This document shows positions 14,043 through 17,736 of a DNA stretch of 64,000 nucleotides, one piece after another. The notes under the pieces are model-generated. The model searched no databases. It was not told the DNA's origin and saw only the letters and a program-made list of their open reading frames with translations. How positions within the stretch are numbered: position 1 is the first letter of the stretch; every line of letters starts with the position of its first letter. The stretch is from Pseudomonas sp. DY-1 (GTDB lineage Bacteria; Pseudomonadota; Gammaproteobacteria; Pseudomonadales; Pseudomonadaceae). The translations under genes were made by a program, and so were the position numbers. The DNA lies in the NCBI RefSeq assembly GCF_003626975.1, contig NZ_CP032616.1, forward strand, positions 3,596,001 through 3,660,000, in the 5' to 3' direction.

Positions 14043-14635
14043 CAGCGCACTCCGCCGGTCTGCTTGAGGAAGTTGGCCAGAAGTTCATGGCCCTGTTCGG
14101 TAAGGATGGACTCCGGATGGAACTGCACACCCTCGATATTCAGCGTTTTGTGACGCAGCCCCATGATCTCGTCGACGGTGCCATCGGCATGCTGGGTCCA
14201 GGCGGTGACTTCCAGCTCGCCGGGCAGGGTTTCCAGCTTCACCACCAGGGAGTGGTAGCGGGTGACGGTCAGTGGGTGGTTCAGGCCTTGGAAGACGCCC
14301 TGGTCCTTGTGGAACACCGGGCTGGTCTTGCCATGCATGGCCTGGCGCGCGCGCACCACATCGCCGCCGAAAGCCTGACCGATGCTCTGGTGACCCAGGC
14401 AGACGCCGAGAATCGGCAGCTTGCCGGCGAAGTGGCGGATCACCTCCAGCGACACGCCCGCTTCGTTGGGCGTGCAGGGGCCGGGAGAGACCACGATGCG
14501 TTCCGGGTTCAGCGCTTCAATCTCGGCGATGGAGAGCTCGTCGTTACGGATCACATGCACGTCCGCGCCCAACTCACCGAGGTACTGCACCACGTTGTAG
14601 GTAAAGGAATCGTAGTTGTCGATCATCAGCAGCAT
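14042..14635 (-). CDS. trpG: Anthranilate synthase component II (glutamine amidotransferase)
   Basis: Supplies ammonia to TrpE. The 197-residue class I amidotransferase has the nucleophile Cys79 in [10 protein letters not shown] and the His-Glu pair in [10 protein letters not shown]. The start at 14635 is fixed by the conserved [11 protein letters not shown]; its GAGG ribosome-binding site overlaps the trpE stop codon. Only 10 bp separate it from trpE. In PAO1, by established knowledge, an R/F-pyocin cluster sits between these two genes; here nothing does. Confidence 0.97.
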
Positions 14636-14645
14636 GGTGCAATCC

Positions 14646-16133
14646 TCAGGCGTCGGTCTTGGCGGTCTGTTCGGCGAGAGCCACGGCACGGAACATGGCG
14701 CGGCGCTTGTTCAGCGTCTCTTCCCATTCCAGTGCCGGGACTGAGTCGGCGACGATGCCGGCGCCGGCCTGCACGTGCAGCTCGCCGTCCTTGATGACCG
14801 CCGTGCGGATCGCGATGGCAGTGTCCATATTGCCGTTCCAGGCCAGGTATCCCACGGCACCACCGTAGACGCCACGTTTGACCGGTTCGAGGTCGTCGAT
14901 GATCTCCATGGCGCGGATCTTCGGTGCGCCGGAAAGCGTGCCGGCCGGCAGGATGGCGCGCAGGGCTTCCATTGCGGAGATGCCTTCCTTGAGCTGGCCG
15001 GTGACGTTGGAAACGATGTGCATCACGTTGGAGTAACGCTCGATCACCATCTTCTCGGTGACCTTGACGCTGCCCGTGCTGGCAACGCGGCCGACGTCAT
15101 TGCGGCCGAGGTCGATCAGCATCAGGTGCTCGGCCAACTCCTTGGCATCGGAGAGCAGGTCTTCTTCCAGGGCGCGGTCGGTTTCCTCGGTCGCGCCGCG
15201 CGGGCGAGTGCCGGCAATCGGGCGCACGGTGACCAGGCCATCCTCGACGCGCACCAGCACTTCCGGCGAACTGCCCACTACGTGGAAGTCACCGAAGTTG
15301 AAGAAGTACATGTAAGGCGTTGGGTTGAAGCAGCGCAAGGCGCGGTACAGATCGATGGGAGCGGCCTGGAAGGGAATCGACATGCGCTGGGATATCACCA
15401 CCTGCATGCAGTCACCGGCCAGGATGTACTCCTTGATCTCACGCACCGCCTGCTCGTAGTCCTCACGGGTGAAGCTGGAGCGGAAGTCCGGCTCACCCCC
15501 GACAGGCAGGCTGGGGTCCACGCCCAGGCGCGGCACTACCGGCTGGCGCAGTTTCTGACGCAGTTCGACCAGGCGCGCCTGGCCCTTCTCGTAGGCCTCG
15601 GGCTGAGTCGGATCGACCAGGACGATGGCGTGCAGCTTGCCAGCGAGGTTGTCGAACACGATCACAGCGTCCGAAACCATCAGCAGGATGTCCGGAGTGC
15701 CCAGCGGATCGGGATTCGGGCAATTGGCCAAACGCTTTTCTACGTAGCGCACGCAGTCGTAACCGAAGTAGCCGACCAGGCCGCCGTTGAAACGCGGAAG
15801 GCCAGCGATGGGCGCCACCTGATAGCGCTCTTTGAACGCTTCGACGAAGGCCAGCGGGTCTTCGCAATCGTGGGACTCAACTTCGACATCATCGACGCTG
15901 ACGCTGACTTTCGGGCCGTGGGCGCGCAGTACAGTGCGGCTCTGCAGGCCGATGATGGAGTAACGGCCCCATTTCTCGCCGCCCTGCACGGACTCCAGCA
16001 GGTAGGAGTACGGGGTATCAGCGAGCTTCAGGTAGAGGGAAAGGGGGGTATCGAAATCCGCCAGGGTTTCGAACGCAAGCGGAATGCGGTTATAGCCTTC
16101 GGCGGCCAAACGCAGGAATTCTTCGCGGGTCAT
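14646..16133 (-). CDS. trpE: Anthranilate synthase component I
   Basis: Chorismate to anthranilate, feedback-inhibited by tryptophan. The 495-residue product has the LLES element of the Trp-binding site ([11 protein letters not shown]), the chorismate-binding core [11 protein letters not shown] and the [13 protein letters not shown] motif. I chose the ATG at 16133 because a GAGG site lies 5 nt upstream; the ATG at 16145 has none. Expression is likely attenuated by the Trp-codon leader at 16227-16271. trpE and trpGDC are contiguous here and form one probable transcript with gph and rpe upstream. Confidence 0.96.
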
Positions 16134-16151
16134 GATCAGCCTCATGGGGCG

Positions 16152-16238
16152 GGGAACCCCTTTGAGGGGTTCCTGGAGAAAAAGACGTCGGTGTGAAAGC
16201 GCGCCGGAGTATCCGGCCAGAATGAATTAGGCGCGCCA
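16152..16238 (-). promoter_or_regulatory. trp leader RNA: mutually exclusive hairpins before trpE
   Basis: On the minus strand, GCGCGCC made by the last leader codons (16238-16229 region) can pair with GGCGCGC at 16205-16199. Alternatively GCCGGA and TCCGGC (16218-16203) form a small hairpin on their own. A third stem, GGAACCCC with GGGGTTCC, lies at 16171-16152 just before trpE. A ribosome stalled at the two Trp codons would cover the left arm of the first stem. The only long U-run precedes the third stem, so which hairpin terminates is unclear. Attenuation of trpE is established for P. putida; the structures here are my reading. Confidence 0.5.
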
Positions 16239-16271
16239 GCGCCAACGGGCGACGGCCTTGATGATCTTCAT
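16227..16271 (-). CDS. trpL: trp operon leader peptide, in frame with the gph 3' end
   Basis: An ATG at 16271 opens a 14-codon peptide MKIIKAVARWRWRA ending at TAA 16227, with two Trp codons separated by one codon. This is the composition expected of a tryptophan attenuator peptide, 93 bp before trpE. It is in the same frame as gph, so the same codons are also the C-terminus of the longer gph product. The upstream sequence has only a weak ribosome-binding site and a perfect palindrome GGCTCGTTCGAGCC (16276-16289). Whether the peptide is started independently or only as the tail of Gph is unknown. Confidence 0.6.
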   Translation of the reverse strand: MKIIKAVARWRWRA

Positions 16272-17066
16272 TCCGGCTCGTTCGAGCCAATGCTTGCAGG
16301 GAACCACCACGTGTCTGTCTCGTTGAGGCGGATTGTCGGAGGAGTTCGGCGACATTAGCGCAGCGCCGTGGGCGGCGCAACCGCCGGGAAGCAGCTCACG
16401 CAGGTCATCCACCACCAGCGCCGGTTCCTCTTCGGCGATGGGCCGGCCGTGGTTGTAACCGTAGCTCAGGGCCACGCATTTGACCCCGGCGGCCTTGGCA
16501 GCGAGCACGTCATTGCGCGAATCACCGACGAACAAGGCCTCGCCGCGGCTGACGCCAGTCATGTGCATCACATGGAGCAACGCGGCCGGGTCAGGCTTCT
16601 GTTGCGGCAGGGTGTCGCCAGCGATGATCAGCGGGAAATAGCGGCCCAGCTTCATCTCGTCCAGCAAGGGTGCAACGAAACGCTCGGGCTTGTTGGTGAT
16701 CAGCGCCAGCTCCACGCCCTTCTTCTTCAGCCACTTCAGGGTTTCTGCCACACCGGGATAGACAGTGGTCAGCGCATGGCTGTCGGCGTAGGCCTCCATG
16801 AACAGCTCCAGGCCGCGTTCGGCGTCGCTGTCATGCACGGAGGAATGGTCGAGGCCGCCGGCCAAGGCACGGCGTACCAGCACCCGGGCGCCGTTGCCAA
16901 CCCATTCGCGGACCTGCTCGACGCCAGCCACTGGGCGCCCCAAGGCGACCAGCATGCGATCAATGGCGGCCGCGAGGTCCGGCACCGAATCCACCAGGGT
17001 ACCGTCCAGGTCGAACATCACCAGGCGTGGCAGACGCCCATCGAACAGCCGGTGCAACGTGCCCAT
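16227..17066 (-). CDS. gph: Phosphoglycolate phosphatase, with C-terminal extension
   Basis: HAD-superfamily hydrolase removing 2-phosphoglycolate. The 279-residue product has the nucleophile/acid pair Asp19-x-Asp21 in MFDLDGTLVDS, motif II ITNKPERF, and motif III with FVGDSRNDVLAAKAAG. The enzyme core ends at about residue 233 (DDLRELLPGG). The remaining 46 or so residues are not part of the family, and the last 14 are the trp leader peptide. The start at 17066 lies 1 nt after the rpe stop. A longer frame from 17102 would overlap rpe. Confidence 0.93.
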   Translation of the reverse strand: MGTLHRLFDGRLPRLVMFDLDGTLVDSVPDLAAAIDRMLVALGRPVAGVEQVREWVGNGARVLVRRALAGGLDHSSVHDSDAERGLELFMEAYADSHALTTVYPGVAETLKWLKKKGVELALITNKPERFVAPLLDEMKLGRYFPLIIAGDTLPQQKPDPAALLHVMHMTGVSRGEALFVGDSRNDVLAAKAAGVKCVALSYGYNHGRPIAEEEPALVVDDLRELLPGGCAAHGAALMSPNSSDNPPQRDRHVVVPCKHWLERAGMKIIKAVARWRWRA

Positions 17067-17067
17067 A

Positions 17068-17736
17068 TCAGACCTGGGCCAGCTCGGCGCGCATGGCGGC
17101 AATGACTTCGGCGTAATCCGGCGTATTGAAGATGGCCGAACCGGCGACGAAGGTATCGGCGCCCGCAGCGGCTATCTCGCGGATGTTCTTGACGTTGACG
17201 CCGCCGTCGATCTCCAGGCGGATGTCGCGACCTGAGGCATCGATCAGGGCGCGGGCCTCGCGAAGCTTGTCGAGGGTGCCGGGAATGAACTTCTGCCCAC
17301 CGAAGCCAGGGTTGACGCTCATCAGCAGGATCATGTCGACCTTGTCCATCACGTACTTCAGCACGTCCAGCGGAGTGGCCGGGTTGAACACCAGGCCGGC
17401 CTTCGCACCGCCGTCGCGGATCAGCTGCAGGGAACGGTCGACGTGCTCGGAGGCTTCCGGGTGGAAGGTGACATAGGTGGCGCCGGCTTCAATGAAGTCG
17501 CCAATGATGCGGTCCACCGGCTTGACCATCAGGTGCGCATCGATGGGCGCAGTGATGCCGTACTTGCGCAACGCCGAACAGACCATGGGGCCGATGGTCA
17601 GGTTGGGCACGTAGTGGTTGTCCATCACGTCGAAGTGAACGATGTCGGCGCCGGCGGCGAGAACGTTCTCCACTTCCTCACCCAAGCGGGCGAAATCGGC
17701 GGAAAGAATCGACGGTGCGATGGCGAAAGGCTGCAT
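17068..17736 (-). CDS. rpe: Ribulose-phosphate 3-epimerase
   Basis: Interconverts ribulose-5-P and xylulose-5-P in the pentose phosphate pathway. The 222-residue TIM barrel has [12 protein letters not shown] at the start, the metal/catalytic residues in [12 protein letters not shown] and [18 protein letters not shown] near residue 145 and the C-terminal EIDGGV and AGSAIF phosphate-binding loops. A GAGG site precedes the ATG. It is the first gene of a unit that runs through gph to trpE; pentose phosphates also feed PRPP used by TrpD. Confidence 0.96.

What the first reader, a model, noticed from the sequence alone, without database searches (positions are those of the whole stretch)
16227..17066. 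trp attenuator peptide is nested in frame as the C-terminus of gph
The 14-codon Trp-rich peptide MKIIKAVARWRWRA, 93 bp before trpE, has the composition of an attenuator leader peptide but has no stop between it and gph. The Gph core ends near residue 233, and the extra 46 residues include this peptide. Ribosomes finishing Gph would therefore also read the Trp codons, which could make gph translation itself the attenuation sensor. Attenuation of trpE is known in P. putida; I have not seen the in-frame fusion described.
Basis: partly seen in the sequence, partly recalled or inferred. Interest (0 to 1): 0.72.

Follow-up and report, generated by a model that had tools for sequence, protein, structure and literature searches.

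The report
Trp leader nested inside gph end
In this Pseudomonas and its close relatives the gene gph runs, in the same reading frame, through the promoter and the tryptophan-sensing leader peptide of the next gene trpE and shares the leader's stop codon, but the leader appears to have its own start signals, so the overlap looks like an evolutionary by-product whose possible use as a second sensor is untested.

Summary
In detail: gph (window 17066-16227, minus) has no stop before the Trp-rich peptide and ends on its stop codon, 93 nt before trpE. The 14-codon leader is probably too short: a Shine-Dalgarno-like GAGA and a GTG (16310) give 27 codons with three Trp codons, and a conserved promoter-like TTGCGC-17-TAATGT (16380-16352) lies upstream, also inside gph. 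In 148 family genomes, 136 have gph directly upstream of trpE: gph ends on the leader's stop in 49, on the TAG/TAA opening the trpE -10 hexamer in 39, on the TGA of the -35 TTGA in 9, further upstream in 32, otherwise in 7. Separate relatives keep the same kind of promoter, SD, GTG and Trp codons, so the leader should not need gph translation. The fused state is essentially one clade; three lineages in or beside it broke the frame and kept the leader. Yet the frame changes less often there than outside (1 versus 24 changes; 6.1 expected, P about 0.02, with ascertainment bias), although the linker is weakly constrained as protein. Gph ribosomes acting as a second Trp sensor stays open, not shown. 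No canonical U-tract terminator was found.

The parts
16227..17066 (-). gph, 279 aa, including the nested tail; stop codon TAA 16229-16227 shared with the trp leader
16368..17066 (-). Gph structured core, about residues 1-233
   Evidence: domain matches end by 225-229; pLDDT under 50 from residue 232
16375..16380 (-). -35-like hexamer TTGCGC of the trpE leader promoter, inside gph; some relatives with TTGA end gph on this TGA
16352..16357 (-). -10-like hexamer TAATGT (17-nt spacer; exact register of the -10 not settled); in other genera its TAG/TAA is the gph stop codon
16318..16321 (-). Shine-Dalgarno-like GAGA of the leader
16227..16310 (-). trp leader ORF from GTG, 27 codons VVVPCKHWLERAGMKIIKAVARWRWRA (first codon read as Met in use); Trp codons 16289-16287, 16244-16242, 16238-16236
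16269..16271 (-).
   Evidence: SD 4-mer upstream in only 1 of 110 family genomes with this ATG
16230..16243 (-). hairpin H1 GGCGC-UGGC-GCGCC over the last Trp codons
   Evidence: 98.9% of cells paired but no compensatory change; GC-rich codons kept in AT-rich g12 genomes
16203..16217 (-). hairpin H2 GCCGGA-UAC-UCCGGC starting 9 nt after the leader stop
   Evidence: two-sided changes in all 5 pairs tested, 81.0% of cells paired
16153..16173 (-). further hairpin GGAACCCC-UCAAA-GGGGUUCC before trpE; similar hairpins in other genomes of the window's genus
14646..16133 (-). trpE, likely start ATG 16133 with GAGG 16143-16140 upstream (ORF listing starts it at 16145)

Best explanation
trpE of Pseudomonadaceae is preceded by its own sigma-70-like promoter and a Trp-codon leader ORF that starts at GTG with its own SD; both commonly overlap the 3' end of gph. 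Where gph stops is largely set by these trpE signals: a frame that meets the TGA of the -35 (TTGA) or the TAG/TAA of the -10 stops there. In the ancestor of one clade, which includes the window's genus and loci labelled P. aeruginosa, P. putida and P. fluorescens, the -35 reads TTGC and the -10 lies out of phase, so gph reads on, happens to be in the leader's frame, and ends on the leader's stop. Shown here: the anatomy, its conservation and distribution, frame losses. Inferred: promoter and start use; that ribosomes starved of Trp pause in the leader and raise trpE expression; that gph ribosomes on transcripts entering from upstream pass the same Trp codons, as a side effect rather than as the main sensor.
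For: Promoter pattern TTG-N20-TARYGT in 96 of 116 family genomes against 0.06 expected in mononucleotide shuffles (the genomes are related, so the excess is inflated). 17-nt spacer in 49 of 49 fused genomes (the search preferred 17 where it had a choice). TTGC of the -35 and 4 of 6 positions of the -10 unchanged in 67 fused rows of one spacing class, while core third positions change 10.3 times per site (no fused row lacked the pattern). SD 4-mer before the GTG/TTG start in 104 of 116, 40 of 49 fused and 64 of 67 separate. gph ends on leader stop 49, -10 stop 39, -35 TGA 9, upstream 32, other 7, of 136 (of the 39, 9 and 32, 32, 7 and 23 also show the leader pattern). Distance from -10 to leader stop modulo 3 in separate genomes: 24, 22, 21 of 67. 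Fused genomes lie in one clade of 51 rows, support 99/91, with two exceptions. Frame losses with intact leader: L128, L295, L296/L297.
Against: The frame changed once in the fused clade against 6.1 expected from the outside rate (P 0.016 Poisson, 0.026 binomial), which a pure by-product does not predict. The generic promoter scan called no promoter here, and one match of the pattern in 64 kb is no more than chance (0.48 expected), so the promoter rests on conservation. In a quick second tree the smallest clade with all fused rows has poor support (0.154) and leaves L128 outside. No transcription start or ribosome data were available.
Confidence: 0.8

Rival explanations
1. gph translation is a selected second Trp sensor: ribosomes finishing Gph on transcripts from the rpe-gph promoter read the Trp codons, so that both the long and the short transcript are attenuated; the frame, not the linker's amino acids, is under selection.
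For: Frame kept: 1 change in the clade (tree length 3.34) versus 24 outside (13.15). The linker shows little codon pattern (93, 58, 101 changes at positions 1, 2, 3 summed over four fused groups; 12, 14, 10 in a separate group). 122 of 143 g14 genomes with a match extend to residue 271 or 272 of a fused query.
Against: The clade was defined by the trait, so the P value is optimistic; the leader frame is free of stops by chance in 44 of 67 separate genomes. Three lineages in or beside the clade lost the frame and keep an intact leader. 15 of the 19 genera sampled have no fused case.
Confidence: 0.2
2. The 46-residue tail has a function in the Gph protein (activity, stability, binding), and the leader was built on it.
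For: The tail's end is nearly invariant in protein (W260, K270, A271, A273-R278 invariant in 28 aligned Gph). A helix at 268-277 is drawn, at very low confidence. Second codon positions of the linker change less (58) than first and third (93, 101) in the fused groups, a weak coding-like pattern.
Against: The same peptide is conserved where it is not part of Gph; pLDDT under 50 for 232-279; most separate Gph proteins end near 225-239; third positions of the linker are not raised as in the core (1.88, 0.92, 10.32 per site).
Confidence: 0.08
3. The Trp-rich end is not a leader at all but a chance gph extension.
For: No Rfam match; no canonical terminator; fold energies of four short stretches do not stand out from shuffles (z -0.55, 1.67, 0.89, -1.46).
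Against: The leader pattern is found in 17 of 19 genera, free-standing with SD, GTG and promoter outside the fused ones; RWRW-type ORFs stand before trpE in other families of the order; hairpin H2 is kept through changes; the 156-nt stretch folds better than most shuffles (z -2.08).
Confidence: 0.03

Closest known systems
Attenuation of trpE and trpGDC in Pseudomonas putida (Olekhnovich and Gussin 2001, J Bacteriol 183:3256; title seen in a reference list; the paper is not held; its content is recalled)
   Same: trpE preceded by a putative leader peptide; same gene and genus group
   Different: I cannot say whether that paper noted the frame shared with gph; none of my searches found it described
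E. coli trpL attenuator (recalled)
   Same: short ORF with Trp codons before trpE, hairpin over the Trp codons, further hairpin after the stop
   Different: trpL is free-standing; it has a U-tract terminator, which was not found here; the last Trp codons here sit directly before the stop, spaced by Arg
E. coli tnaC (recalled)
   Same: Trp-sensing leader whose decisive ribosome position is at its end; Rho rather than a U-tract would fit the lack of a terminator here
   Different: tnaC responds to excess Trp; no Rho evidence was obtained here
NCBIfam PRK13223 phosphoglycolate phosphatase
   Same: the model includes the fused tail end to end
   Different: its description, as shown, does not name the tail as a trp leader

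Membership tests
Ribosome-mediated trp leader-peptide attenuator | short ORF with regulatory Trp codons just upstream of a trp gene | tested here: met
Ribosome-mediated trp leader-peptide attenuator | own translation start (SD and start codon) | tested here: met
   by sequence and conservation only: GTG with an SD 4-mer in 104 of 116, 41.8 expected for SD in shuffles
Ribosome-mediated trp leader-peptide attenuator | alternative RNA hairpins tied to the Trp codons | tested here: inconclusive
   H1 and H2 conserved; predicted folds differ between species; no conserved switch shown
Ribosome-mediated trp leader-peptide attenuator | intrinsic terminator with U-tract before the structural gene | tested here: not met
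   0 terminator-like sites; 178 of 199 loci have 3 or fewer T in the 8 nt after the best hairpin
Ribosome-mediated trp leader-peptide attenuator | trpE expression rises on Trp starvation through the leader | not testable with these tools
   needs an experiment
Rfam families of trp leaders | match to a covariance model | tested here: not met
   no match to any Rfam family up to E 1 in 15900-17100
NCBIfam PRK13223 Gph | score above curated cut-off over full length | tested here: met
   469.2 bits against 466, 1-279

The most novel reading that the evidence does not exclude
The reading frame of a metabolic enzyme has been kept open into an amino-acid leader peptide in one clade because ribosomes completing the enzyme serve as a second Trp sensor for the downstream operon, so one stop codon and one set of Trp codons serve two ORFs on two transcripts.
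Probability: 0.2. Interest if true: 0.72.

Novelty: new variant of a known kind. Interest (0 to 1): 0.5.

Why it matters
It shows a regulatory leader, its likely promoter and its stop codon overprinted on the end of an upstream enzyme gene over a large bacterial clade, and it explains the odd, conserved C-terminus in public Gph annotation. Within one family gph takes its stop codon from a -35 box, a -10 box or a leader stop. Natural frame-loss strains next to fused ones make the second-sensor idea directly testable.

Tried and rejected
Leader start at ATG 16271: rejected in favour of GTG 16310. A pairing of the end of the leader with the 3' arm of H2 as a universal antiterminator: rejected, because g2, g13 and g16 examples have CCG instead of GCG after H2. 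A stall at the first Trp codon as the universal sensor: rejected, because that Trp is missing in 16 of 116 leaders.

Fusion outside the family: one search covered 155 genomes and found trpE in 124; I fetched 46 loci from outside the family; trpE was recognised in 43, gph upstream on the same strand in 17, and no Trp-rich ORF listed shares its stop with gph. The 80 named loci are all fused, but they are the best matches to a fused query and were not used for frequencies; they do enter the substitution counts. One search took L160, L161 and L164 as fused because the reading began behind a stop; corrected. 25 of 144 family loci do not match my leader pattern (119 do), L129 and L148 only by a changed last residue. 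Eight of the 144 have no gph upstream. In the tree 4 short gph rows were left out. One search listed only its 150 best matches of 258 genomes and was replaced, which lists all 143. In one search the 21 genomes that do not reach residue 271 have identities of 61-71% (18) and 78-91% (3); the three lie with the fused rows in a quick tree. Control against the structure: slid versions of the helices show as many or more two-sided changes (11, 17 and 11 at -3, -2 and +1, against 11), although far fewer cells pair (28.7-56.7% against 90.0%); so the support for H2 is the pairing together with the changes.

Papers: searches were aimed at this locus or at a nested leader (10, 62 and 78 found no paper; two listed six each, none of which describes it by title, start of abstract or, for PMC6722718, passages). 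Broader searches listed attenuation papers; none describes it as far as the listings show. Of PMC8297930, PMC6722718, PMC2965389 and PMC12548453 I saw passages only. Most subscription papers are not held, so absence from print is not shown.

Full report
Observation. On the minus strand gph runs from 17066 to 16227 without a stop and its last residues are MKIIKAVARWRWRA; 93 nt separate its stop from the trpE ATG at 16133. Domain matches end by residue 225-229. An AlphaFold2 model from an alignment of 28 Gph gives pLDDT under 50 for 232-279 and for no other stretch of three or more residues. NCBIfam's PRK13223 model covers the protein to its last residue.

Leader anatomy. Still further up is TTGCGC-17-TAATGT at 16380-16352. 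In the window alone these prove nothing: the promoter pattern is expected 0.48 times in 64 kb and a generic scan found no promoter. They stand on comparison.

Survey. 148 Pseudomonadaceae genomes drawn evenly were searched with TrpE; 144 had a match, and their upstream regions were read (loci). gph lies directly upstream in 136. It ends on the leader's stop in 49, on the TAG/TAA that begins the -10 hexamer in 39, on the TGA inside the -35 TTGA in 9, further upstream in 32, and otherwise in 7. Of the 39, 9 and 32, the leader pattern is also present in 32, 7 and 23; in the rest the promoter assignment is less sure. The window's genus g1 is fused in 18 of 18, g2 in 2 of 2, g9 in 17 of 17, g14 in 12 of 18; none of the other 15 genera has a fused case. 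The promoter pattern is present in 96 of 116 genomes that have gph and the leader pattern (0.06 expected), and an SD 4-mer stands before the GTG/TTG start in 104 of 116 (41.8 expected), 40 of 49 fused and 64 of 67 separate; before the ATG in 1 of 110 (5.9 expected). In separate genomes the distance from -10 to leader stop is spread over all three frames (24, 22, 21 of 67).

History. On a tree of the Gph core the 49 fused rows fall in one clade of 51 (support 99/91) with two exceptions: L128, whose frame is shifted just before the leader, and L200, a divergent row without a recognised leader on a long branch. A quick second tree gives the clade poor support (0.154) and puts L128 just outside, but its linker is plainly the fused type with a shifted frame. 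Near neighbours L124, L129 and L130 stop on the TGA of the -35, where fused genomes have TTGC; a TGA to TGC change is therefore a plausible origin, not a proven one. In a second sample of 144 g14 genomes 143 matched a fused query; 122 match to residue 271 or 272 and 21 do not. Three of the 21 are closer to the fused ones (78-91% identity): G329 has a frame shift in the linker, G423 and G305 a shift that puts the -10 TAA in frame. All three keep an intact leader and fall among the fused rows in the quick tree.

Is the frame selected? Counting changes in the frame between Gph core and leader on the tree gives 1 in the fused clade (length 3.34) and 24 outside (length 13.15); 6.1 expected, P 0.016 by Poisson and 0.026 by a binomial, 0.012 without two long-branched genera. 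Against this, the clade is defined by the trait, and the leader frame is free of stops by chance in 44 of 67 separate genomes. The linker between -10 and SD has little codon pattern in fused groups (93, 58, 101 changes by codon position over four groups, so second positions change somewhat less) compared with the core (1.88, 0.92, 10.32 per site in the largest group); a separate group gives 12, 14, 10. So if anything is selected it is the open frame more than the amino acids.

RNA. The last Trp codons lie in a hairpin GGCGC-UGGC-GCGCC (H1), nearly invariant even in g12 genomes with locus GC of 0.36-0.39. A second hairpin (H2) starts 7-11 nt after the stop in the examples printed, with two-sided changes in all five pairs tested; shuffles reached the observed number of compensatory cells in 0 of 500, but slid versions of the helices reached it too, so the percentage of paired cells (90.0 against 28.7-56.7) is the better evidence. 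Fold energies stand out only mildly (z -2.08 for 156 nt; -0.55 for the 61-nt core). H2 is mostly followed by TTTGC rather than a U-tract: 178 of 199 loci have at most three T in the next eight bases. How termination or its avoidance works here is unresolved; Rho is a candidate that I could not test.

Outside the family, 43 order-level loci with trpE include free-standing ORFs ending in RWRW-like peptides and 17 upstream gph genes; no listed ORF shares its stop with gph.

Conclusion. The finding is real and widely conserved, the leader is probably longer than described, and by sequence it carries its own promoter and start. The nesting is best read as one clade's outcome of a family-wide overlap in which trpE signals set the end of gph. 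The second-sensor reading is not excluded, has modest statistical support, and can be tested with one stop codon.

Noticed in passing
window 16288-16275 (minus): Palindrome GGCTCGAACGAGCC in an insert of the leader between the first Trp codon and the ATG, in the window's genus; similar GGCTC-N4-GAGC stretches in L299 and L300.
   Followed up: no
window 16153-16173: Extra hairpin between H2 and trpE; similar hairpins with changed arms in other genomes of the window's genus.
   Followed up: no
window 14635-14648: trpE stop and the likely trpG ATG are about 10 nt apart, so trpE and trpG are contiguous here, with trpD following.
   Followed up: no
L301 (G346): Two copies of the gph end with leader about 1.3 kb apart in one g14 genome with 9% contamination.
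   Followed up: no
L143, L149, L152, L214 and L016, L017, L020: Longer stretches between the box after H2 and trpE (104-201 nt from leader stop in the first four), so the control element seems to end at that box.
   Followed up: partly
L250, L258, L263, L274 and others: Other families of the order have free-standing ORFs before trpE whose Arg-Trp codons sit at or near the stop.
   Followed up: partly
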